Below, in pieces: positions 5,789 to 37,215 of a stretch of DNA of 64,000 bases; position 1 is the first letter of the stretch, and each line of letters starts with the position of its first letter. The stretch spans positions 121,512 through 185,511 of the forward strand of contig JALQCY010000005.1 in assembly GCA_023241745.1 (NCBI GenBank), read 5' to 3'. The translations under genes were made by a program, and so were the position numbers. The notes beneath the pieces were generated by a model. The model did not search any database. It saw nothing but the letters and a program-made list of their open reading frames with translations, and was not told where the DNA came from. Source of the stretch: Isoptericola peretonis. Its GTDB lineage: Bacteria; Actinomycetota; Actinomycetes; Actinomycetales; Cellulomonadaceae.

Positions 5789-6571
5789 TCAGAGGGCGCG
5801 GCGGTAGGCGCGGAACGCCAGCGAGGCGAGCGCGCCCATCACGCCGACGGCGGCGGCGAGCAGCCCCAGGTGCAGCCACACGGTGCCGGGGTCGGCGAAG
5901 CCCTGCAGCGCGTCGCGGGCGACGACCACCGCCCAGTCGAACGGGTTGTACCGCGCGACGTCGGCGATCCAGTCCGGCGCGAGCGCCGGGTCCATCACGG
6001 CCGACGAGAGGAACATCAGCGGGATCGTCAGCAGCTGGGAGACGCCGATGAGCGCCTCCTGCTGGCGGGTGAGGAGCGCGACGGCCCCCGAGAGCGCGGC
6101 GAACAGGCAGCTCAGCAGCGCCACCGCGACGAGGGTCACCAGCACGCCGGCCCCGCCGCCCGGGAACCTCGCCCCGCCCAGCCACGCCACGCCCACGACG
6201 ACCAGCGCCTGGCCGCAGCCCACCAGCGAGTACCAGGCCATCGTCGCGGCGAGCAGCGCGCCGCGGCTCGTCGGCGAGGCGAGGAAGCGGTCCATGACCC
6301 CGCGCTCCATGTCCTGCACGAACGTCGTCCCCGCCCACGCCGCACCGCCCATCGCCGTCATCATGACGACGCCGGGCGTGAGGTACTCGAGGTAGCTCAC
6401 GTCCGCCCCGCCGGCGAACCCGGGGATCTCGATCACCGACCGGAAGAGCTGGCCGAACAGCAGCAGCCAGATCATCGGCTGCAGCAGGTTCATGACCATG
6501 AACACGGGGATGCGCGCACCCTGGCGCGCCTGCCGCCCCGTGAGGAGGGCGGCCTGCGTCACGGCGCTCAT
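5789..6571 (-). CDS. ABC-2 type drug exporter permease
   Basis: A 260-residue integral membrane protein with about six hydrophobic segments in the ABC-2 (DrrB-like) arrangement. It includes VSYLEYLTPGVVMMTA and the conserved DRFLASPTSRGAL loop, which is diagnostic for daunorubicin-type exporters. It would form the membrane pore for the ATPase encoded immediately upstream; the two genes overlap by 4 nt (ATGA). The substrate is unknown. Control by the PadR-family regulator encoded upstream is plausible from the gene order. Confidence 0.88.
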   Translation of the reverse strand: MSAVTQAALLTGRQARQGARIPVFMVMNLLQPMIWLLLFGQLFRSVIEIPGFAGGADVSYLEYLTPGVVMMTAMGGAAWAGTTFVQDMERGVMDRFLASPTSRGALLAATMAWYSLVGCGQALVVVGVAWLGGARFPGGGAGVLVTLVAVALLSCLFAALSGAVALLTRQQEALIGVSQLLTIPLMFLSSAVMDPALAPDWIADVARYNPFDWAVVVARDALQGFADPGTVWLHLGLLAAAVGVMGALASLAFRAYRRAL

Positions 6572-7611
6572 GCCGCCACCTCCTCGGCCTCGACACCGGC
6601 CGAGGCGCGGTGGGCCGCCGCCATGCTGCGGCCGGTGTGCCGCAGGTAGACGTCGTCGAGCGTGGGCCGGGACAGGCCCGCCGCCCGCACCCCGAGGCCC
6701 GCGGCGTCGAGCGCCGCCAGCAGGGCCGGGAGCGCGGTGGCCCCGGCGTCGGCGCGCGCCCGCAGCGTGGGCCCGTCGGCCGCGACGTCGACGACGCCGG
6801 GCACGCGCGCGGCCACCGCCGCCGCCGAGGCCGCGGCGACGTCGTCGCCGAGGTCGACGGTGACGCCGTCTCCGCGCAGCTCGTCCTTCAGCGCGTCGGG
6901 CGTGCCGGTGGCCACGACGCGCCCCGCGTCCACGATGACGACCCGGTCGGCGAGCCGGTCGGCCTCCTCGAGGTAGTGCGTGGTGAGCAGGATCGTCATG
7001 CCGTCGCCGAGCGCCATCCGCTCGATCTCGGACCACATGGCGGCACGGGCCTCGGGGTCGAGGCCCGTGGTGGGCTCGTCGAGGAACAGCACCTGCGGCC
7101 GGTGCACGAGGCCGACGGCGACGTCGAGCTTGCGCGCCATCCCGCCGGACCAGGTCTTCACGAGGCGGCCGGCGGCGTGCGCGACGCCGAAGCGCTCGAG
7201 CAGCTCGTCGGCCCGCTGCCGGGCGTCCCGGGCGCCGAGACCCTGCAGCCGGCCGGCCAGCACGAGGTTCTCCCGGCCCGTGCCCATGGGGTCCGTCACC
7301 GGACGCTGCGCCACGTAGCCGATGGCGCGGCGGACGGCGGCCGGGTCGCGGACGACGTCGTGCCCGGCCACCCGGGCCGTCCCGGAGTCGGGTCGCGACA
7401 GCGTCGCGAGGATCTTCACGGTCGTGGACTTGCCGGCGCCGTTGGGGCCCAGCAGGCCGAGCACGCTGCCGTGCGGGGCCGTGAGGTCGAGGCCGTCGAG
7501 CGCGCGCACCGTGCGGGCGCCGCGGCCGGAGCCGTAGGTCTTGGTCAGGCCGGCGACGTCGATCGCGTTGTCGATCGCGCCGCCCGCCGACCCGTTCGGG
7601 TGTGCGGACAT
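6568..7611 (-). CDS. ABC transporter ATPase, DrrA-like
   Basis: A 347-residue ATPase. The Walker A is GPNGAGKST (about residues 55-63). The signature region reads WSGGMARKLDVAVGL, a slight variant of the usual SGGMRRRLD. Walker B is VLFLDEPTTGLDP, followed by an H-loop TTHYLEEAD. The C-terminal about 100 residues are the extra domain seen in daunorubicin-resistance ATPases (ending RPTLDDVYLRHTGR). It powers export through the overlapping permease gene. The order PadR, HAAS-type membrane protein, ATPase, permease is consistent with a regulated antibiotic or lipid exporter. Confidence 0.92.
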   Translation of the reverse strand: MSAHPNGSAGGAIDNAIDVAGLTKTYGSGRGARTVRALDGLDLTAPHGSVLGLLGPNGAGKSTTVKILATLSRPDSGTARVAGHDVVRDPAAVRRAIGYVAQRPVTDPMGTGRENLVLAGRLQGLGARDARQRADELLERFGVAHAAGRLVKTWSGGMARKLDVAVGLVHRPQVLFLDEPTTGLDPEARAAMWSEIERMALGDGMTILLTTHYLEEADRLADRVVIVDAGRVVATGTPDALKDELRGDGVTVDLGDDVAAASAAAVAARVPGVVDVAADGPTLRARADAGATALPALLAALDAAGLGVRAAGLSRPTLDDVYLRHTGRSMAAAHRASAGVEAEEVAA

Positions 7612-27369: not shown

Positions 27370-27447
<78 letters not shown>

Positions 27448-27448
27448 C

Positions 27449-27544: not shown

Positions 27545-28759
27545 CTACGCCGCGCCACGTCCACCCGCTTCGTCGTCCTTGGCCGGCGATTCCTCGACCC
27601 CCATCACCGAGAACAAGTCGTCCATCGCACGGGCCCCGGTCTGGAGCACCGGTCGCAGCTCGTGCCGGTAGACAGCTTCCGTTACCGCGGTTCCCGAGTG
27701 GCCGACGAGCCGGGAGATCTCCTCGAGCGGGACGCCGTGCTCGCTCATGAGAGAGACGAAGGAGTGCCGCAGGTCCCGCGGGGTCCACTCCGAAGGCTCG
27801 AGCCCGGGTACCCGTCGCAGCGCGTCGCGGAAATGCCGTCGCACGTTCGAGGCGTCGAGTGGTGTTCCGACCTGCGAGGCGAAGACGAGTCCGTGCTCCT
27901 GCCAGCGCTCGCCAGCTGCCCTCCGCGCCTCCGCCTGGGTGTGCTGCTGAGCGCGCAGGGCACGCACCGCGATCGTCGGCAGCGCAAGCGTCCTTCGCGA
28001 CTTCCGGGTCTTCGTGTCGCCGCCGACTCGGACCGAACGCCACACGTTCACCGACGGCGGCGCGGGCGGGTCACCGTCGGGTCGCCCCTCGAGGTCGACG
28101 TGCCGCCACTCCAGAGCGCGCACCTCTTCCGTCCGCAGCCCCGTCGTCAGCGACAGCACGATGTAAGCGTGCATCGGATGTCCCACCGAGCGTCCGAGCA
28201 CGTCGTCCGCCTGCCGCAGCGTCAAGGATCGTGAGTCGCGGCCAGCCCGTCCGCGCGGGATCTGCGCGAGCTCGACGACGTTGCGCTCCACCATCCCCTG
28301 GATCATTGCGCGGCGTACCGCACGGTTGAGCACCGAACGCGTCTCGCGGAGCGTCCGGGTCGACTGTGTTTGCCCGAGGGTGATGAGCCACCGCTCGACC
28401 TCGTCGGCACGCAGGTCCTTGAGCTTCCTCGCACCGAGATGCTCGATGACGTGCCGTGCGAGGTAGCCGTGCTTCTCGGTCGTCCGCTCGCCGGCCTTGC
28501 CCTGTCCGAGCTCGAGCCAGTCCTCGACGGCCCGCTTCACGGTGTACCGATCAGCTCCGACCCGGATCCCAGCCTCGTGCTCCTTGACCTTCTCCCGCAG
28601 GGCTCGGAGAGCCGCCGACTCCGTCTTGCCGGAACCGCGACGCACAATCCGCTTCCCCCGCGCGTCGTAGCCGACCACCTTCGCCGCGAGGTAGCGCTGG
28701 CGACGCTCGTCCCAGTAGACGCTCCCCTCCCCGTGTGGGGCGCGCTGTCGCTCGTTCAT
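27545..28759 (-). CDS. int: Tyrosine site-specific integrase
   Basis: A 404-residue phage/ICE-type tyrosine recombinase. The N-terminal arm-binding and SAM-like domains span about residues 10-160. The catalytic residues are Arg209 (TTGLRTEE), Arg331 in TPRDLRHSF (the box I-type histidine is replaced by Arg328, a variant I recall from other actinobacterial integrases), His354 (LVGHSGT) and the nucleophile Tyr364 (AVYRHEL). It overlaps xis by 4 nt and lies about 100 bases from tRNA-Pro. It should integrate and, with Xis, excise the element. Confidence 0.95.
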   Translation of the reverse strand: MNERQRAPHGEGSVYWDERRQRYLAAKVVGYDARGKRIVRRGSGKTESAALRALREKVKEHEAGIRVGADRYTVKRAVEDWLELGQGKAGERTTEKHGYLARHVIEHLGARKLKDLRADEVERWLITLGQTQSTRTLRETRSVLNRAVRRAMIQGMVERNVVELAQIPRGRAGRDSRSLTLRQADDVLGRSVGHPMHAYIVLSLTTGLRTEEVRALEWRHVDLEGRPDGDPPAPPSVNVWRSVRVGGDTKTRKSRRTLALPTIAVRALRAQQHTQAEARRAAGERWQEHGLVFASQVGTPLDASNVRRHFRDALRRVPGLEPSEWTPRDLRHSFVSLMSEHGVPLEEISRLVGHSGTAVTEAVYRHELRPVLQTGARAMDDLFSVMGVEESPAKDDEAGGRGAA

Positions 28760-29007: not shown

Positions 29008-30537
29008 TCAGGCTCGATGGATGCGCGCGTGGCGCCGGTCGGCACGCCACTTCTCGTACTCGCGGGCACGAGACGCCGCGGCGTCGGCGAGGGCCTTGTC
29101 CCCCGCACGAGGCCAGCCCGACCCCTCGAATGCCCAGTTGGCGATTACGAGGGTTGTCTCCTCCTCGTCCGCCATGAGCCGATCCTCGAGCTCTCGGACG
29201 TCAAGCACCTCGTCGCGATGACGTGAGTCGGCTGCGTAGCGTTGGAAGCGTCGGCGGGCGCGACGCAGGGCCCCCAGGGTGACCGAGTAGCGGCGCGACT
29301 TGCTCGAGAAGTGGCCGCGGAACCCGAGCATCAGAGCCCATCGACCGAGCAGGGCGTATGTGTTCTGGCAGCACTCGCCGCAGAGGCGTGCGCGGCGGTC
29401 GTTGACGCGCTCGTCGCACCCGAAGGGACACCCGGCGAGGGCGCGGGTCGCCAGGGCTCGGCAGGAGTCGATGATCCTCTCGAGGTGCGGAGCAGGGCGC
29501 CTGGGGTCGACGCCGGCCGACTTGGTCGAGTACTTCGCGAGGTACGCGGCAACCTGCTCAGCGGTGATCTGGTCGCCGGCCGCCGCGCCATCACGGACGA
29601 CTCGCACGTCGGTCTGGCTGCCAAACCGGAGGATGCGTTCGACGTCGCCGTCATCGACGGGCATGGCCGCGTACTGGACCGCAGTGACAGCGTCGCGAAC
29701 TCCTCGCTCCAGCGCTGACGCCGTGATCGGCGCTGGCGACCCCGGACCATCGGGTCCGTCGATCCGGACGAGCCCATGGAAGTGGACCAGCCCGCGCGCC
29801 TGAAACTCAGCGACCTTGGCGTACTCGAGGCGCGCATGGTGCTTGAGATCGCGTTCCGTGACGCCGAGCTCAGCGGCAAGCTGCCGTCGCAGGGCGATCG
29901 TGAACCGGCGCCACAGCTCGGGCGCGTGCCACTGCCAGACCACGGCCGACTCGACGTCGTAGCAGTCCGGGCACAGCGGGGCGCCGACGTCAGGGTCGTC
30001 GATGTCGTGGTGCGCCCAGCACGTCAGGCGCCGGCCGTGCGGGCAGACGCCGGTGCGCGATCGCGGATGGCAGGGCTGTTTCCCGTCGCGGGCACTGTGC
30101 ACGGCCCCGAAGGAGGGCGCAGTGAGCGTGACGAACAGCAGCGGGTTCGTCTGGACCGTGGCCGGGACGCCCTTGCCCCCGTGCAGGCCGGTGGAGACCA
30201 ACTCGAAGGTGTCGCGCGCATAGATGCGCGAGCACGAGGGGCAGACCTCCTCGCGCCGGTTGCCGCAGGGCTTGAACAGCCTCCCCATCGGTTCGTCGAC
30301 CGAGCGAAAGGTCGTGATCTCGCCGGTGCGCGTGTCGACGGTCTCCGAGCTGCCGACGAGACGGACCGGGTGGGCGCAGTTGCCGACCTTGGCGAGCGTC
30401 GCAGCGAGGGCCGGCATCGTGCCGTCGGCGAGGCGTCCCACGATGGACTCCGCCTCGGACGCGACGAGGTCGCCCAGCTCGAGGGGAGCGTCGGGCCCGA
30501 AGCCCGGGAACCCATCGCGCGTCGCCGTCGTCATCAC
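29008..30537 (-). CDS. repSA: RepSA-type replication initiator
   Basis: A 509-residue protein of the RepSA family of actinomycete integrative elements (pSAM2 type), which starts rolling-circle-like replication of the excised circle. Visible features are FVTLTAPSFG (motif 1), ARGLVHFHG with the HFH metal motif at residues 252-254 (motif 2), AAYLAKYSTKS with candidate tyrosines (motif 3), and several zinc-type Cys pairs (CPSC, CPDC, CGECC). It overlaps the tra gene by 4 nt. Confidence 0.9.
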   Translation of the reverse strand: MMTTATRDGFPGFGPDAPLELGDLVASEAESIVGRLADGTMPALAATLAKVGNCAHPVRLVGSSETVDTRTGEITTFRSVDEPMGRLFKPCGNRREEVCPSCSRIYARDTFELVSTGLHGGKGVPATVQTNPLLFVTLTAPSFGAVHSARDGKQPCHPRSRTGVCPHGRRLTCWAHHDIDDPDVGAPLCPDCYDVESAVVWQWHAPELWRRFTIALRRQLAAELGVTERDLKHHARLEYAKVAEFQARGLVHFHGLVRIDGPDGPGSPAPITASALERGVRDAVTAVQYAAMPVDDGDVERILRFGSQTDVRVVRDGAAAGDQITAEQVAAYLAKYSTKSAGVDPRRPAPHLERIIDSCRALATRALAGCPFGCDERVNDRRARLCGECCQNTYALLGRWALMLGFRGHFSSKSRRYSVTLGALRRARRRFQRYAADSRHRDEVLDVRELEDRLMADEEETTLVIANWAFEGSGWPRAGDKALADAAASRAREYEKWRADRRHARIHRA

Positions 30538-32012
30538 GCCGCCTCAGGATCCTCAGGCTCACGCGGAGCGCGAGGCGAGCGCTGGCGGTCGGGAGGCGGG
30601 GCGACGATCGAGACGAGCTCGCCCACCTGCTCGTCAACGTCAGTCTCAGGCTCATCTGGTTCCTCGTCCGCACCGGGATCGACCGGCGCCGGGTAGGTGC
30701 CCGCGACCAGCCGGAGGACGTCGTCGGGCCAGTAGTCGGCCCGCACCCGCTCGACCTCGCCGTCGTTGCGCACGACGTACCCGACCCCGGGCATGGTCCG
30801 GTCAATGCGGTGCGCCGGGGCGAGGTCGCCGTACCCGTCGCCGAGGACCATGCGGGTCTCCGACGTCGAGGCGAGCCTCAGAGCGATGGTCTGGGTGAAC
30901 AGCTCGCGCATGCCCACGGTCTCCTTGCGCGGGTCCTGCACGAAGGCCACCACCATCACGCCGAGTGCGCGGCCCTGAGTCAGGATCCGCTTGAGCAGCG
31001 TGGTCGCCTCGTTGACGACGTCGCGCGACGCGTAGCCCGTCAGCACGGCGAGCTCGTCGATCAGCAGCACGTGCGCCGGGTCTCCCTCGGAAGGTTCGAA
31101 CTGCCGAGTCCTGCCCCGCATGGCAGCCTGCCGCTCGCCGATGACCCTGTGCAGAGAGTTGAGCAGCTCGAGCGCCGCCCGTTCGTCCATTGCGACCGAC
31201 GAGAACATCCTTGCGCCCACAGCTACCTCGACGCCGCCCTTGAGGTCGATCCCCCACAGCCGCACGAGTCCGGCGCTGGCCGCCGGGGAGAGGTTGCCCG
31301 CGATGCCCCAGAAGATCGACCCCTTGCCAGCACCCGATCGTCCGACGACGAGGGTGTGACGGCCGGCGAGCTCGAGCCGCCATGGCGAGCCGTCCGAGCG
31401 CCGGCCGAGGGTGACGGCCTCGGTCTCGATCTCGTCCGGGAAGGGAGGCGTAGACGGCTCGTGCAGGAGCTCGCGCATCGTCAGCACGATCTCAACCACA
31501 CCCGGACCGATGCGTCGCGAGTCGACCGACTCCGCGTCGAAGGCGGTAGCAATGGCCTCGGCAGCATCAACCAGGTCATCGACGGTCTGCCCGACGACGG
31601 CACGGACGCGGAGCGTGAGCGTGTTCCCGCTCGTACGGACCTTGAGCAGCTGAGGGAATCGTTGCCTCTTGTCGTTCTCCCACGGCCACGCGAGCCCGCA
31701 CCGCTCGGCAACCCGACCCCACTCCTTGCGTACCCGACGTCGCCAGGCTCGACGACGCAACGGACCGCCGAGTGCCGCCTCGTACGTGAGCGGGCTGACG
31801 GCTTCCCAGATCGCCCGGACCGTGTTCCATACCGGCACGAGTAGCAAGACGGCGATCCCCGCCGCTTCGTGGTCGGTGATCAGCAAGACGTCGCCGACCA
31901 CGAAGCTGACGAGAATAATTCGCCACGACTGGGCGGTCCACGCCACGGAGTTCCAGAACGCGCGCCCTGCCCGCCCGAGCAACGAGCCGATCAAAGCGAG
32001 CCCGGACATCAC
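30534..32012 (-). CDS. traSA: FtsK/SpoIIIE-type DNA translocase, TraSA-like
   Basis: A 492-residue protein. Two hydrophobic segments (about 30-65) anchor it. The FtsK-type ATPase core has Walker A GRSGAGKGS (224-232) and Walker B VLLIDELAVL (around 315-324), and a later arginine-finger-like stretch. In AICEs this single protein moves double-stranded DNA between mycelial cells. It is coupled by 4-nt overlaps to its neighbours on both sides. Because a VirB4-type apparatus lies downstream in this element, it could also act as that machine's coupling ATPase; this is inference. Confidence 0.9.
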   Translation of the reverse strand: MMSGLALIGSLLGRAGRAFWNSVAWTAQSWRIILVSFVVGDVLLITDHEAAGIAVLLLVPVWNTVRAIWEAVSPLTYEAALGGPLRRRAWRRRVRKEWGRVAERCGLAWPWENDKRQRFPQLLKVRTSGNTLTLRVRAVVGQTVDDLVDAAEAIATAFDAESVDSRRIGPGVVEIVLTMRELLHEPSTPPFPDEIETEAVTLGRRSDGSPWRLELAGRHTLVVGRSGAGKGSIFWGIAGNLSPAASAGLVRLWGIDLKGGVEVAVGARMFSSVAMDERAALELLNSLHRVIGERQAAMRGRTRQFEPSEGDPAHVLLIDELAVLTGYASRDVVNEATTLLKRILTQGRALGVMVVAFVQDPRKETVGMRELFTQTIALRLASTSETRMVLGDGYGDLAPAHRIDRTMPGVGYVVRNDGEVERVRADYWPDDVLRLVAGTYPAPVDPGADEEPDEPETDVDEQVGELVSIVAPPPDRQRSPRAPREPEDPEAA

Positions 32013-33005: not shown

Positions 33006-33758
33006 ATGACGAACGAACGACTGCGCGCAGCGATCACCGACGCCGGATTCTCGCTCCAGGAGTTCAGCGACCAGCTCGGCGTCGATCCCAAGACCGTCGA
33101 GCGCTGGATCACCAAGGACCGGATGCCCTACCTGTCCCACCGCATGAACGCCGCAGGCATCTTGGGCAGGACCGCTGGCTACCTCTGGCCGTCGACCGAG
33201 GCCGACCCTCGCACGAAGTCAGCCACCCGCGCCGAGCTCGTCGACCTCTACCCCAGCCGTGGCGCGCTTCCCATCTCCATGTGGGAAGACCTCATCGACG
33301 GCGCCACCGAGTCGATCGACCTTCTCGCTTTCGCCGGCTCGTTCCTGCACGACGGGATTCCTGAGTTCGGCGAGCGGATCAGGGCACGTGCGGCGGCAGG
33401 CGTGCGAATTCGCCTGCTGTTCGGAGACCCAGAGAGCGCAGCTGTCACGCTACGCGGCGAGGAGGAGGGCATCGGCGACCTCATGGCTGCCCGATGCCGG
33501 CTGACGTGGAACTACCTCGCACCCTTGCTCGACGGCATCGCGGGCATTCAGGCACGCAAGCACGGCAGCACGGTCTACGCCTCGCTCTTCCGCTTCGACA
33601 ACACTCTGCTAGTCAACCCACACGCCCTGGGCGCGCCGGCCGGGCACTCCCCGATCCTCCATCTGCATCGCATCGCTGGTGGCAAGCTCTTCGATCACTA
33701 CATGGAGTCCTTCGATCGGACCTGGCAGTTCGCCAATCGATCGCTACGACTCGACTAG
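33006..33758 (+). CDS. XRE-type regulator with phospholipase D-like C-terminal domain
   Basis: A 250-residue protein. The N-terminal HTH reads LQEFSDQLGVDPKTVERWI. The C-terminal about 150 residues (MWEDLIDGATESIDLLAFAGSF, IRARAAAGVRIRLLFGDPES) look like a PLD-type fold without an intact HxK motif, as in XRE/DUF5919-type proteins of actinomycete elements. The probable role is control of the divergent transfer operon, possibly after sensing a ligand with the second domain. ATG 33006 is chosen because the HTH begins there. Confidence 0.75.
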   Translation: MTNERLRAAITDAGFSLQEFSDQLGVDPKTVERWITKDRMPYLSHRMNAAGILGRTAGYLWPSTEADPRTKSATRAELVDLYPSRGALPISMWEDLIDGATESIDLLAFAGSFLHDGIPEFGERIRARAAAGVRIRLLFGDPESAAVTLRGEEEGIGDLMAARCRLTWNYLAPLLDGIAGIQARKHGSTVYASLFRFDNTLLVNPHALGAPAGHSPILHLHRIAGGKLFDHYMESFDRTWQFANRSLRLD

Positions 33759-34019
33759 CCCAGACGTCTGGATCGCCTCGCGCAAAACTCGACCCAGCGC
33801 TACCAGGGCCGACCCGTCCCATCGGCAGCGGCAGAGCGCCTGTCCATCAACCACTACCCGTGCGCGTCGCCCGCCGCTGTCGTTCAGCCTCTCGCTCAGG
33901 CGCCCTAGGAACAAAGTCCGGAAGCCAACACCGCCCTCGAGGCCGCCGGCAAGAACATCAGCGCTCCGGCGCCACGCTAGGCAACCCAATGAGCGCGAGC
34001 ACCGAGTAACCTTCCCCTC

Positions 34020-35351
34020 GTGGGATCTCATTGGCTACTGACCGCGGGGCGGCGCGAACTCCTCTGGGGGAAGAACTTCCTGCCCGACCCGCTGATGCTT
34101 GTCTTCGATGACGACGACCGACGGATTGACCGAACGCGCTATGCCGCGCTGCAAGCCCGTTGGTCCACAGACGACGGCGCCGAAACATCTAACGAGGAAT
34201 TGCATCACCTATACACCTACCAAGCCAAAGCCGAAGACCTCGTAGCCCGCCTGACCCTCCAAGGCTTCGGACCTACTGCAGTAGTCGAGCATGCCGAGAG
34301 ATATCTGGACGATGAGATGGGCTCCGAAGACTCGTTCCTTTGGGGTGACATCGACAAGGAATACCGGACGGGCAAACGCTTGTTGCAAGCTATGTTGACC
34401 TGGGAGTCCCGGAACGGACGAATCATGGCCCGTGGGGAGTCTCGACATGATCGATCGATGTCCTGGGCCTGGGATGAGTTGCTCGAAGCTTTTGACGACC
34501 CTCGCTTCAAACTTGCACTCGGCCTCACTCGCACCCGGCGCTCTACTACGGTCACGCTCGATCTCACGGATCTCCTTCTCGGAGGCTGGCTTGAAGAGAA
34601 CGAAATCCCGCACCGAACTGCGCGCACACGAGTCGCAAACGACGTGACCGCGAATGGGCGCGTGATCGTAATCACCGAGGGCCGCACAGACGCAGAGTTT
34701 CTCACCCGAGCCCTCGCTCTTGCCCGACCCGAGCTCACAGACGCCTTCTCTTTCTTGGACTTCGAAGGAACGTCTGCACCCGGAGGTACCGATCGCGTGG
34801 TGAGCCTCACTCGCGGCATGGCGGCGGCGAAGGTAATGAATCGAGTCGTCGCCGTACTTGATAACGACACGGCAGGCAAAGCTGCATTTGAACAGCTCAA
34901 GCGCAGTAATCTTGCAGTCACGATAACAGCCACCCGACTGCCCGACGTCGAACTTGGATCAAGCTATCCCACCCTTGGCCCGAACGGCATGTCCCATGTG
35001 AACATCAATGGTCGAGCGATCACAATTGAAATGATGTTTGGTCAAACCGTGCTGCAGGATTCTGCGAATCTTACGCTATCACCGGTCCGGTGGACCGGCT
35101 ACAACAGCGCTGTGGGCGAGTATCAGGGAGAGGTTGAGGCCAAGAAGCTGATCCAAGCTCGCATACGAACTGCCCTATCAGCGCCCTCAATCGACCATCT
35201 TGACGAAGAGGCTGCCGAGGGTTGTCGCCGGCTGGCCAGCATGCTGATTGATGCGACAGCTGAGGCCACGCCTGCACTATCGTCCGATTTCTCTCCATTA
35301 CTCTGGATCCGCGAGCGCGAGAGTGATGCAAACGTCTCGATCGACAACTAG
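34020..35351 (+). CDS. HEPN/Toprim-N domain protein with Toprim fold, putative defence nuclease
   Basis: A 443-residue protein starting at GTG. Residues 1-190 match the 'HEPN/Toprim N-terminal domain' pattern (MGSHWLLTAGRRELLWGKN, DDDDRRIDR). A Toprim-like domain follows with VIVITEGRTDAEFL (Glu220, Asp224) and VVAVLDNDTAGKAAF (Asp281-x-Asp283), the catalytic acids of Toprim nucleases. Such proteins are associated with anti-phage or nucleic-acid conflict functions. Base composition is visibly more AT-rich than the flanks, and it interrupts the AICE backbone between the XRE and Nudix genes, suggesting a later insertion. Confidence 0.75.
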   Translation: MGSHWLLTAGRRELLWGKNFLPDPLMLVFDDDDRRIDRTRYAALQARWSTDDGAETSNEELHHLYTYQAKAEDLVARLTLQGFGPTAVVEHAERYLDDEMGSEDSFLWGDIDKEYRTGKRLLQAMLTWESRNGRIMARGESRHDRSMSWAWDELLEAFDDPRFKLALGLTRTRRSTTVTLDLTDLLLGGWLEENEIPHRTARTRVANDVTANGRVIVITEGRTDAEFLTRALALARPELTDAFSFLDFEGTSAPGGTDRVVSLTRGMAAAKVMNRVVAVLDNDTAGKAAFEQLKRSNLAVTITATRLPDVELGSSYPTLGPNGMSHVNINGRAITIEMMFGQTVLQDSANLTLSPVRWTGYNSAVGEYQGEVEAKKLIQARIRTALSAPSIDHLDEEAAEGCRRLASMLIDATAEATPALSSDFSPLLWIRERESDANVSIDN

Positions 35352-35410
35352 TTGCCGTCACGCGGGAGCCAACCTAGCGGTGGTCACATCGGAACGAATC
35401 GGAGACGTCA

Positions 35411-36025
35411 GTGATCAGTGATTCCGTGCCATGGAAGGAAAGTCTTCTGGCTACGGCCGCTCGAATTGAGCGGAAGGTCGTCCAGAAGCGCTGGACAGAA
35501 CGCTCGATGTTTCTGTTCGAGCGTGACGTAATGACGGCGGCATACTCGGTTCGTAAGCTAATTGAGTCTCACAAAGTGTCCGACACCCTCGCAAGAAAGT
35601 CGTGGCCGCTAATCAAGTTCGCACGGATTGGCCCCGTGCCGGATGTGTACAACTTCTACGCGCCGGAAGAACTGTTCGATCTATCGTCGTCAACGCGATT
35701 CAGCTTATCGACCCTGGAGATCACCAACCAGATAGTCCACAGTTTTCTATTCTTCCCGGTCTGGCAGTGGCATGAAGAGACCGGTAGGCGCGGAAACCTG
35801 ATTTCACTATCCTTCGTTTCTGATCGGCGTCGTCGCGACCATCTTCTTTCCATAGACATTGGCAAAATCATCGAATTGCTCAACGAGGTTGGAGATGAGG
35901 ACGTCATTAGCGTGACAATGAGGCCCGATGAGAACGGAGAGCGATACTTCAGCGAAGTCGTTGGTGTAGGGCGCGGCGATCCGAGACATTGGGCGTCAGG
36001 ATGCGCCAATGAGTCCGAAACTTGA
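35411..36025 (+). CDS. Unrecognised 204-aa protein, partner of the Toprim gene
   Basis: A protein starting at GTG 35411, 59 bases after the Toprim gene. I recognise no family. The N-terminal half is helical (RSMFLFERDVMTAAYSVRKLIESHK) and contains R48-x5-H54, which fits the R-x(4-6)-H motif of HEPN RNases, though this short pattern also occurs by chance. The C-terminal half is beta-rich (FFPVWQWHEETGRRGNLISLSFVS, DVISVTMRPDENGERYF). It shares the AT-rich composition of the Toprim gene, so the two probably arrived together. There is no signal peptide or membrane segment. Confidence 0.6.
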   Translation: MISDSVPWKESLLATAARIERKVVQKRWTERSMFLFERDVMTAAYSVRKLIESHKVSDTLARKSWPLIKFARIGPVPDVYNFYAPEELFDLSSSTRFSLSTLEITNQIVHSFLFFPVWQWHEETGRRGNLISLSFVSDRRRRDHLLSIDIGKIIELLNEVGDEDVISVTMRPDENGERYFSEVVGVGRGDPRHWASGCANESET

Positions 36026-36149
36026 GCAGGTCGAAGGTTGTCGTCGGCGGGAATGAATGATTCAGTTCGCAGGGGAGGAACGTCGCGGACGGCACGAACC
36101 TTCGCGATCCCTCGCTGAGCAGGTCAGCGAGCCGCGTAGTCTCGTTGGT

Positions 36150-36620
36150 ATGGCTCGAACCGACTTCATCGACGACCCCAGCGCCCCGGCGATCAACTCG
36201 GTCGTCCCCTCCGTTGTCGCGATCGTCCAGGACGACCGGGGCCGCGTGCTCATGATCCACAAGACCGACAACGACAAGTGGGCGTTGCCGGGCGGTGGCC
36301 ACGAGCCTGGCGAGAGCATCGCCGACACCGTGGTCCGCGAGGTCCGGGAAGAGACGGGCTACGAGGTCGAGGTCGAAACGATCACCGGCACGTACACCAA
36401 CCCGAATCACGTCATCCAGTACGACGACGGGGAGGTGCGCCAGCAGTTCTCGATCGCCTTCCGCGCACAGCTGGTCGGCGGCGTGAAGCAGACCAGTTCC
36501 GAGAGCGACGAGGTGGAGTGGCTCACGCCCGAACAGATCGAGGGCCTAGACCTCCACCCGTCGATGCGGCTACGCCTCGAGCATGCGCTCAGCGACTCCG
36601 ACCGGCCATTCATCGGGTAG
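36150..36620 (+). CDS. Nudix hydrolase, Pif-like immunity factor
   Basis: A 156-residue Nudix protein. The Nudix box is complete: GGGHEPGESIADTVVREVRE, followed by ETGYEV. In pSAM2-type elements the Nudix protein Pif prevents redundant transfer into cells already carrying the element; the position in this AICE supports that role, but a house-cleaning nucleotide hydrolase is also possible. ATG 36150 begins the conserved fold; an upstream in-frame extension is not conserved-looking. The 3' end overlaps the convergent HD gene by 51 bases. Confidence 0.8.
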   Translation: MARTDFIDDPSAPAINSVVPSVVAIVQDDRGRVLMIHKTDNDKWALPGGGHEPGESIADTVVREVREETGYEVEVETITGTYTNPNHVIQYDDGEVRQQFSIAFRAQLVGGVKQTSSESDEVEWLTPEQIEGLDLHPSMRLRLEHALSDSDRPFIG

Positions 36621-37148
36621 CCCGAGTCGCTCGCGCGCGCGTCGGGCGGACGCAATGAGCGCGGCCTGCGAGCGGGTGACGGCTCGATGGACAGGACTGA
36701 ACGTGGGGTACCTGCTCAGGATCTCCGCGACCCTGGTCTCCGGGTCGGTCGTCGTCCCGTCCGGCGCCGTCACGAGGTCTAGGAGGGTGAGCACGTCAAG
36801 CTCGTCCGGTTCGGGTGCCGGCAATCTAGCCAGATGCTCGCTCAGTCCCCGCTCATCCGCTTCGAAGTCGGCGCCCGTGTGATGGGCAACGAGCGCCACG
36901 ATCTCCGTTGGGACACCCTCGTCCATGAGGAACGACGCTCCATCGAGCGGGTGGAAACCCCTCGTCGAGAGCTCCTCGGCGTAGCCCAGGTCGTGCAGCC
37001 AAGCAGCCGCTACGACGTCTGACGACACCCTGTGAGCTAAGGCGAGATCCTCAGCCAGTCGCCCTACAGCCTGGACATGGTCCCAGCGACGGCCGAGACC
37101 TGATAGGTACTCGGACGCCAGCTTCGGCGCCACCTCTGCGCTCCACAT
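36570..37148 (-). CDS. HD-domain phosphohydrolase
   Basis: A 192-residue protein with the HD pattern RWDHVQAV, then AAWLHDLGYAEEL and LVAHHTGADFEA, giving the histidine/aspartate metal ligands H..HD..H..(D). HD proteins hydrolyse nucleotides or phosphate esters. Small HD proteins next to Nudix genes recur in actinobacterial AICEs. ATG 37148 is chosen; an ATG 48 bases upstream is possible. The convergent overlap with the Nudix gene is unusual but short. Confidence 0.8.
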   Translation of the reverse strand: MWSAEVAPKLASEYLSGLGRRWDHVQAVGRLAEDLALAHRVSSDVVAAAWLHDLGYAEELSTRGFHPLDGASFLMDEGVPTEIVALVAHHTGADFEADERGLSEHLARLPAPEPDELDVLTLLDLVTAPDGTTTDPETRVAEILSRYPTFSPVHRAVTRSQAALIASARRARERLGLPDEWPVGVAERMLEA

Positions 37149-37215
37149 GTTCCCATCGTGCCCCTGCCCGACCACATCGCCTAGTTCGTCCCCCACGGTT
37201 CGATCTGACGACCGA

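What the first reader, a model, noticed from the sequence alone, without database searches (positions are those of the whole stretch)
34020..36025. AT-rich two-gene insert: HEPN/Toprim-N plus Toprim protein and an unknown R-x5-H protein
Seen: a 443-aa protein with Toprim acids (E220-x3-D224, D281-x-D283) after a HEPN/Toprim-type N-terminal domain, then a 204-aa protein with an R48-x5-H54 motif. Both genes are plainly lower in GC than their neighbours and split the AICE order between the XRE regulator and the Nudix gene. Known: HEPN/Toprim-N domains occur in nucleic-acid conflict proteins, and HEPN RNases use R-x(4-6)-H. Inference: a compact two-component defence or transfer-immunity system carried by the element.
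Basis: partly seen in the sequence, partly recalled or inferred. Interest (0 to 1): 0.78.

Follow-up and report, generated by a model that had tools for sequence, protein, structure and literature searches.

The report
Two-gene nuclease cassette in conjugative element
A small DNA insert in a transferable bacterial element carries a predicted nucleic-acid-cutting enzyme of a known but untested defence family next to a protein of an unnamed family; the two genes also sit side by side on two unrelated plasmids, so they may work together against invading DNA.

Summary
Window 33759-36149 is a low-GC insert (58.1%, against 69.7% for the rest of the element seen) between the xre and nudix genes of an actinomycete integrative element with 49-bp att repeats. 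In 4 of 5 related elements taken, that junction is empty; the fifth holds a different candidate defence gene. Gene 1 is a HEPN/Toprim-NTD1 + Toprim protein: PF18871 27.8 bits, cut-off 25; all four Toprim acids in 24 of 24 aligned sequences, its own included. That architecture was described in 2013 (PMC3710099). Gene 2 belongs to an unnamed family without a Pfam, NCBIfam, PADLOC or PHROGs match. It is not HEPN-like: H54 is in 1 of 14 sequences (its own), and the model is a helical hairpin plus beta sheet. E37, R48, K55, H110 and S137 are invariant. The pair is adjacent in 2 of 25 other gene-1 loci and 2 of 15 other gene-2 loci held, in three gene orders, once with an 8-bp overlap. Most relatives held are unpaired. 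Best reading: a defence cassette whose Toprim nuclease is the effector and whose gene-2 product is an optional partner. The partner role is inferred; defence is untested.

The parts
34020..35351 (+). Gene 1: HEPN/Toprim-NTD1 (match at residues 1-91) plus Toprim core (E220-x3-D224, D281-x-D283) and a conserved C-terminal part (G331, E337, G370, K375 invariant); predicted metal-dependent nuclease
35411..36025 (+). Gene 2: 204-aa protein of an unnamed family (invariant E37, R48, K55, H110, S137); no known domain found
33759..36149 (.). Low-GC insert (2391 bp, 58.1% GC) between xre and nudix; site empty in 4 of 5 related elements taken
33009..33758 (+). xre-type regulator (helix-turn-helix matches are below Pfam cut-offs), left neighbour of the insert
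36150..36620 (+). Nudix hydrolase, right neighbour (start corrected from 36057 by comparison with relatives)
36570..37196 (-). HD-domain phosphohydrolase; xre-nud-mdp is a described cluster of such elements
27400..27448 (+). attL: 49 bp at the 3' end of tRNA-Pro, repeated exactly at genome C16:187152-187200 (1.6 kb beyond the window end)
27545..28759 (-). Integrase next to attL

Best explanation
The insert is a cargo cassette of the element. Gene 1 encodes a single-chain Toprim nuclease effector: the N-terminal HEPN/Toprim-NTD1 is the sensing or activating part and the Toprim core cuts nucleic acid with bound metal ions. Gene 2 encodes an accessory protein of a still unnamed family that is recruited next to this nuclease, where I infer that it tunes triggering or substrate choice. 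Together they would protect the element's host, and so the element, from phages or competing mobile DNA. Shown: the insert, the domain call, the conserved acids, the recurrent adjacency and the defence-type neighbours of some relatives. Inferred: nuclease activity, the partner role of gene 2, the trigger and the target.
For: PF18871 above cut-off; E220, D224, D281 and D283 in 24 of 24 aligned sequences. HEPN/Toprim-NTD1 is fused to HEPN RNases, TOPRIM and an Mrr-like REase in conflict contexts (PMC3710099, passages), so the shared N-terminus is plausibly a sensor. The pair is adjacent in three settings: window tandem with a 59-bp gap; Micrococcus plasmid pLMV7, head to head; Gluconobacter oxydans H24 plasmid, gene 2 first with an 8-bp overlap ATGGGTAG. 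In the plasmid collection gene 2 (query: relative L017) is in 6 and gene 1 in 47 of 72,556 records; 2 records have both, adjacent; 2 or more shared records have probability 6e-6 under independence (computed after the pairs were known). The same xre-nudix site in a related element holds a gene matching PADLOC model PDC-S59 (E 2.8e-117). Among 13 gene-2 loci without gene 1, chosen neighbours in 5 are a type ISP enzyme, an MmeI-type enzyme, a NERD-helicase, an AAA/OLD-like ATPase and an AbiV protein. One gene-1 relative is followed by AbiV beside CBASS genes.
Against: 23 of 25 gene-1 loci and 13 of 15 gene-2 loci held are unpaired, so neither needs the other everywhere. In 198 genomes of the order gene 2 was found in 4 and gene 1 in 5 (3 of them weak, Toprim part only); only the window's own genome has both. 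With the window's gene 2 itself as query only 3 plasmid records were found, none a pair. The closest gene-1 relative (46%, L085) has no gene 2 in 11.5 kb. The paired label is scattered on both trees (3 changes each). The base rate of defence genes near arbitrary cargo was not measured. No PADLOC model matched any gene-1 or gene-2 protein scanned at E 0.001. In the six-frame search with PF18871 the window's own genome gave no match at E 0.001, so the N-terminal call is near the limit. No solved structure matched gene 1 significantly, and its fold job was not accepted.
Confidence: 0.5

Rival explanations
1. Two independent single-gene defence modules that happen to share a cargo slot; gene 1 and gene 2 each act alone.
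For: Most relatives held are unpaired (23 of 25 and 13 of 15); gene orders differ; the paired label is scattered on the trees; some unpaired gene-2 copies have defence-type neighbours.
Against: Immediate adjacency in all three cases, an 8-bp stop/start overlap in Gluconobacter, and record sharing at 6e-6 under independence; that figure does not allow for the clustering of defence genes.
Confidence: 0.3
2. Toxin-antitoxin-like pair: gene 1 is a toxic nuclease and gene 2 its neutraliser.
For: Compact two-gene organisation on mobile elements, with an overlapping pair in Gluconobacter.
Against: Both genes are mostly found without the other in the loci held; an obligate neutraliser should accompany the nuclease.
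Confidence: 0.08
3. A function in the element's own life cycle (regulation, replication, conjugal immunity like the Pif Nudix protein of pSAM2) rather than defence.
For: The site lies inside the xre-nud-mdp cluster; Nudix Pif acts in conjugal immunity (PMC3218068, passages). Toprim also occurs in primases and topoisomerases (PMC10568477, passage).
Against: 4 of 5 related elements lack the insert and the fifth has a different gene there; gene-1 relatives lie on unrelated plasmids, viral contigs and genome contigs.
Confidence: 0.07
4. Gene 2 is a HEPN RNase with the R48-x5-H54 motif.
For: R48 is invariant; N106-x3-H110 (N in 10 of 14, H in 14 of 14) loosely resembles the polar-x3-H half of a HEPN motif.
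Against: H54 in 1 of 14; alpha/beta model without a four-helix bundle; no HEPN family hit for 13 members; no profile similarity to two AbiV HEPN proteins.
Confidence: 0.03

Closest known systems
HEPN/Toprim-NTD1 + TOPRIM fusion proteins (Anantharaman et al. 2013, PMC3710099; PF18871)
   Same: Gene 1 has the same N-terminal domain and the Toprim core
   Different: No partner gene is mentioned in the passages seen. The Pfam match covers only profile positions 1-80 of 223
PARIS (AriA ATPase + AriB Toprim nuclease)
   Same: Works like: a Toprim nuclease effector in a small two-gene cassette on mobile elements; AriB is a two-metal tRNA-cutting nuclease (PMC12409363, start of abstract and passages)
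   Different: No ATPase partner: gene 2 has no AAA or ABC match. That AriB lacks HEPN/Toprim-NTD1 is recalled
OLD / Gabija GajA nucleases
   Same: Toprim domain with acidic metal-binding residues; two-metal cleavage suggested for class 2 OLD (PMC10568477, passages)
   Different: No ABC ATPase match in gene 1; the GajA match is only E 0.029
AbiV (HEPN) abortive infection proteins
   Same: AbiV sits where gene 2 would be: right after a gene-1 relative in Bradyrhizobium, and two genes from a gene-2 relative in Halioglobus
   Different: No sequence-profile similarity to gene 2

Membership tests
HEPN/Toprim-NTD1 + Toprim proteins | PF18871 N-terminal domain above Pfam's cut-off | tested here: met
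   27.8 bits against 25 with the GTG start read as M; 23.9 bits, just below, with the first residue as V; no match at E 0.001 in the six-frame search of its own genome. Match limited to residues 1-91, profile 1-80 of 223. 12 of 13 members of alignment A6, its own included, match at E 0.01
HEPN/Toprim-NTD1 + Toprim proteins | Toprim catalytic acids E-x3-D and D-x-D | tested here: met
   E220, D224, D281, D283 in 24 of 24 aligned sequences; Pfam Toprim_2 itself is below its cut-off (16.3 of 22.1 bits)
HEPN/Toprim-NTD1 + Toprim proteins | Nuclease activity | not testable with these tools
   needs a bench assay; the fold job for gene 1 was not accepted
HEPN superfamily (for gene 2) | Conserved R-x4-6-H motif | tested here: not met
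   R48 14 of 14, H54 1 of 14. Some HEPN families lack the H of the motif (PMC3710099 passages), so this alone is not final
HEPN superfamily (for gene 2) | All-helical bundle of about four helices (recalled) | tested here: not met
   AlphaFold2 model, mean pLDDT 80.3, pTM 0.72, 8 sequences: helices 7-23 and 30-52, then mostly strands. One predicted model of moderate confidence
HEPN superfamily (for gene 2) | Sequence-profile match to a known HEPN family | tested here: inconclusive
   No HEPN family among Pfam hits of 13 members at E 10; comparison with two AbiV proteins negative; diverged HEPN domains can be missed this way
PARIS | OLD/ABC ATPase (AriA) encoded beside the Toprim gene | tested here: not met
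   the neighbours of gene 1 are xre and gene 2; neither has an ATPase match
AICE (actinomycete integrative and conjugative element) | Integrase beside a tRNA gene with flanking att repeats | tested here: met
   exact 49-bp repeat at tRNA-Pro and 38.2 kb downstream; integrase matches solved integrases, best E 3.3e-8
AICE | Rep and FtsK/TraB-type transfer genes | tested here: inconclusive
   The FtsK-like ORF has relatives near xre in 5 of 5 related elements and the Rep-like ORF in 2 of 5 within the stretches taken, but their names are recalled; a sequence search of the FtsK-like ORF against solved structures found nothing
AICE | xre-nud-mdp cluster described for several AICEs | tested here: met
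   Nudix (PF00293) and HD (PF01966) above cut-off; the xre gene's helix-turn-helix matches are below cut-off; cluster described in PMC3218068 (passages)

The most novel reading that the evidence does not exclude
Gene 2 founds an unrecognised defence-associated protein family with its own invariant polar site (E37, R48, K55, H110, S137, nearly D138) and no recognised fold, found in Actinomycetota and, from single plasmid records, in Cyanobacteria, Spirochaetes, Alpha- and Gammaproteobacteria; it acts alone in many genomes and has been joined repeatedly to HEPN/Toprim nucleases to form a new two-component immune system.
Probability: 0.33. Interest if true: 0.72.

Novelty: new variant of a known kind. 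Interest (0 to 1): 0.5.

Why it matters
HEPN/Toprim-NTD1 + Toprim genes lie on plasmids and viral contigs of several phyla and were predicted to be conflict proteins in 2013, yet in the three paper searches made for them (listings, and passages of 3 of the 4 papers listed) I saw no experiment on them. The recurrent side-by-side pairing with a small unnamed protein gives a compact, clonable unit in which trigger, effector and partner can be separated, and it names a second family that deserves testing on its own. It also shows the xre-nudix junction of these elements as a cargo site that takes candidate defence genes.

Tried and rejected
Rejected: gene 2 as a HEPN RNase (H54 in 1 of 14; alpha/beta model). 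Not seen: gene 2 in phages; no match in 50,697 phage records, and none confirmed among 15 pattern hits in viral contigs. Rejected: gene 2 as a diverged piece of gene 1 (profile comparison, probability 0.3%). Rejected: a constant other partner of gene 2; all-against-all comparison of 86 ORFs around the gene-2 loci found, besides gene 2 itself, one shared pair, resolvases (ORFs of 120 aa or more within 3.2 kb, picked mechanically, so some true genes may be missing).

Weak: no control was run for defence genes near gene 1 or gene 2, and neighbours were scanned only as chosen (20 proteins, none from L010, L011 or L025). The 6e-6 figure assumes independent records, ignores that defence genes cluster, and was computed after the pairs were known. 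Of the 47 gene-1 plasmid records 15 were fetched with flanks. The gene-2 copies of L024 (altered C-terminal part) and L025 (internal loss) and the gene-1 copies of L035 and L045 (broken) were left out of the final alignments and trees but stay in the locus counts of 15 and 25. Gene-1 hits L007-L009 (Toprim part only, E about 1e-4) were dropped before the counts. The Gluconobacter gene-2 copy follows a transposase and seems to lack its first residues. The Leptospira noguchii record (H75/H80) and the phage record (H24) were not fetched. L022 is the same locus as L021 in a second Cryobacterium species and counted once.

Full report
What is there. Two intact ORFs lie at 34020-35351 and 35411-36025 on the + strand. 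They are 58.0% and 53.2% GC while the flanking xre and nudix genes are 65.5% and 65.2%. The 2391-bp stretch 33759-36149 is 58.1% GC against 69.7% for the rest of the element seen in the window and 75.0% for the window before the element; no stretch of that length wholly outside the insert in that part of the element is under 67.1%.

The host element. A 49-bp exact repeat at the 3' end of tRNA-Pro (window 27400-27448) recurs at contig position 187152-187200, about 1.6 kb past the window end, so the element is about 38.2 kb. An integrase lies next to the tRNA. The xre, Nudix and HD genes match the xre-nud-mdp cluster described for several AICEs (PMC3218068, passages only). The names Rep and FtsK for 29008-30537 and 30534-32012 are recalled; the calls show only that relatives of the second lie near xre in 5 of 5 related elements, and of the first in 2 of 5, within the stretches taken.

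The site is a cargo slot. A search for the xre protein in 61 genomes of the same family found it in 11, the own genome included. The five best others were taken with flanks. In 4 of 5 the xre and nudix genes are directly adjacent; in the fifth (L070) about 1.5 kb lies between them and encodes, on the other strand, a protein of 453 aa or more that matches the PADLOC model PDC-S59 (E 2.8e-117) and no Pfam family at E 0.01. That PDC stands for phage defence candidate is recalled; a paper search for PDC-S59 found no paper with that name. The comparison also shows that the Nudix protein starts near 36150.

Gene 1. With its GTG start read as M it passes PF18871 (27.8 bits, cut-off 25); with V it is just below (23.9), and the six-frame search of its own genome with this model gave no match at E 0.001. 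Only residues 1-91 match. Relatives: 47 of 72,556 plasmid records, 1 of 50,697 phage records, 5 viral contigs, 4 of 396 genomes of the same order with the family profile, one of them weak and one the window's own. Across 24 aligned sequences, its own included, E220, D224, D281 and D283 are invariant, as are R77, G82, P308, G331, E337, G370 and K375. Anantharaman et al. 2013 list HEPN/Toprim-NTD1 fused to two HEPN families, to TOPRIM and to an Mrr-like REase (PMC3710099, passages). I saw no paper with an experiment on the family in three searches. A gene-1 fold could not be obtained.

Gene 2. No family match at E 1 or better in Pfam, NCBIfam, PADLOC or PHROGs; for 13 family members Pfam gave only scattered single hits (best E 0.011) and PADLOC none at E 1. 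It is rare: 4 of 198 genomes of the order, its own included; 1 of 396 of the phylum sample, its own; 10 loci in the genome collection scan, which needs two short conserved stretches; 6 of 72,556 plasmid records with relative L017 as query, 3 with the window's protein. Members come from Actinomycetota, a Scytonema plasmid, Leptospira plasmids, a Halioglobus plasmid and a Gluconobacter plasmid. E37, R48, K55, H110 and S137 are kept in 14 of 14 sequences and D138 in 13 of 14; H54 in 1 of 14, the window's own. The AlphaFold2 model (8 sequences, mean pLDDT 80.3, pTM 0.72) has two long helices (7-23, 30-52) followed by a mostly beta part. No solved structure stands out. So it is not a HEPN protein of the kind proposed; the conserved histidine is H110.

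Do the two belong together? Counting distinct loci other than the window, 25 gene-1 loci and 15 gene-2 loci were held with flanks of varying length; the two genes are neighbours in 2: Micrococcus sp. V7 plasmid pLMV7 (L012, head to head, about 0.2 kb apart) and Gluconobacter oxydans H24 plasmid (L038, gene 2 first). In the latter an ATG of gene 1 lies inside the gene-2 stop region (ATGGGTAG, 8-bp overlap), seen by reading the DNA; reading from that ATG gives the family's MGS start, upstream of the annotated start. Against a fixed pair: 23 of 25 and 13 of 15 loci are unpaired; in 198 genomes of the order only the window's own genome has both genes; and the closest gene-1 relative (46% identity, L085) has no gene 2 in 11.5 kb. 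On both trees the paired label needs 3 changes (well-supported branches force at least 3 for gene 1 and 2 for gene 2), so the link was made or lost repeatedly. Three gene orders and repeated joining fit an optional functional partnership; they also fit two defence modules that often travel together.

Surroundings. Of the 13 gene-2 loci without gene 1, chosen neighbours in five are of defence type: a type ISP restriction enzyme (L016), an MmeI-type enzyme (L018), a NERD-helicase (L020), an AAA/OLD-like ATPase (L004) and an AbiV HEPN protein (L015); neighbours scanned at L017, L019, L021, L023 and L024 showed none, and those of L010, L011 and L025 were not scanned. Among gene-1 loci, one is followed after 33 bp by an AbiV gene next to CBASS genes (L044), one lies beside a Schlafen-type AlbA gene (L080), one beside an HNH-type gene (L079), one near an AbiEii gene (L042) and one beside a restriction endonuclease gene (L039); most others listed show no such neighbour by annotation. 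No base-rate control was run.

Mechanism. Most likely gene 1 is a Toprim nuclease effector with NTD1 as its sensing part, working like AriB of PARIS (a two-metal tRNA-cutting Toprim enzyme; PMC12409363, start of abstract and passages) or OLD Toprim nucleases (PMC10568477, passages), and gene 2 adjusts trigger or target. It is not a member of PARIS or Gabija: no ATPase was found in or beside it. Nuclease activity, target and the role of gene 2 are inference.

Verdict. Gene 1 is a new member of a known predicted family; gene 2 is of a family without a name in the libraries scanned; their recurring adjacency is new as far as the searches named above go.

Noticed in passing
window 36057-36620: The Nudix ORF as listed is over-extended at its 5' end; relatives align only from residue 26 or later, and the conserved start is near 36150.
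   Followed up: yes
L070 6430-7872: A related element carries a different cargo gene at the same xre-nudix junction, matching PADLOC candidate PDC-S59 at E 2.8e-117.
   Followed up: partly
L044 3365-5299: On a Bradyrhizobium plasmid a HEPN/Toprim gene is followed after 33 bp by an AbiV gene, beside CBASS genes: a possible alternative partner.
   Followed up: partly
L015 3374-5555: On a Halioglobus plasmid an AbiV gene, a 268-aa unknown ORF and a gene-2 relative follow each other on one strand.
   Followed up: partly
L021 and L022 at 6001-6597: Two Cryobacterium species carry the same gene-2 locus with an identical gene-2 protein, suggesting recent transfer or very close genomes.
   Followed up: no
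L025 2103-2427, L024 6001-6633: Two gene-2 copies look broken (internal loss; altered C-terminal part).
   Followed up: no
window 27400-27448 and genome C16:187152-187200: Exact 49-bp att repeats define a 38.2-kb element whose right end lies just beyond the window.
   Followed up: yes
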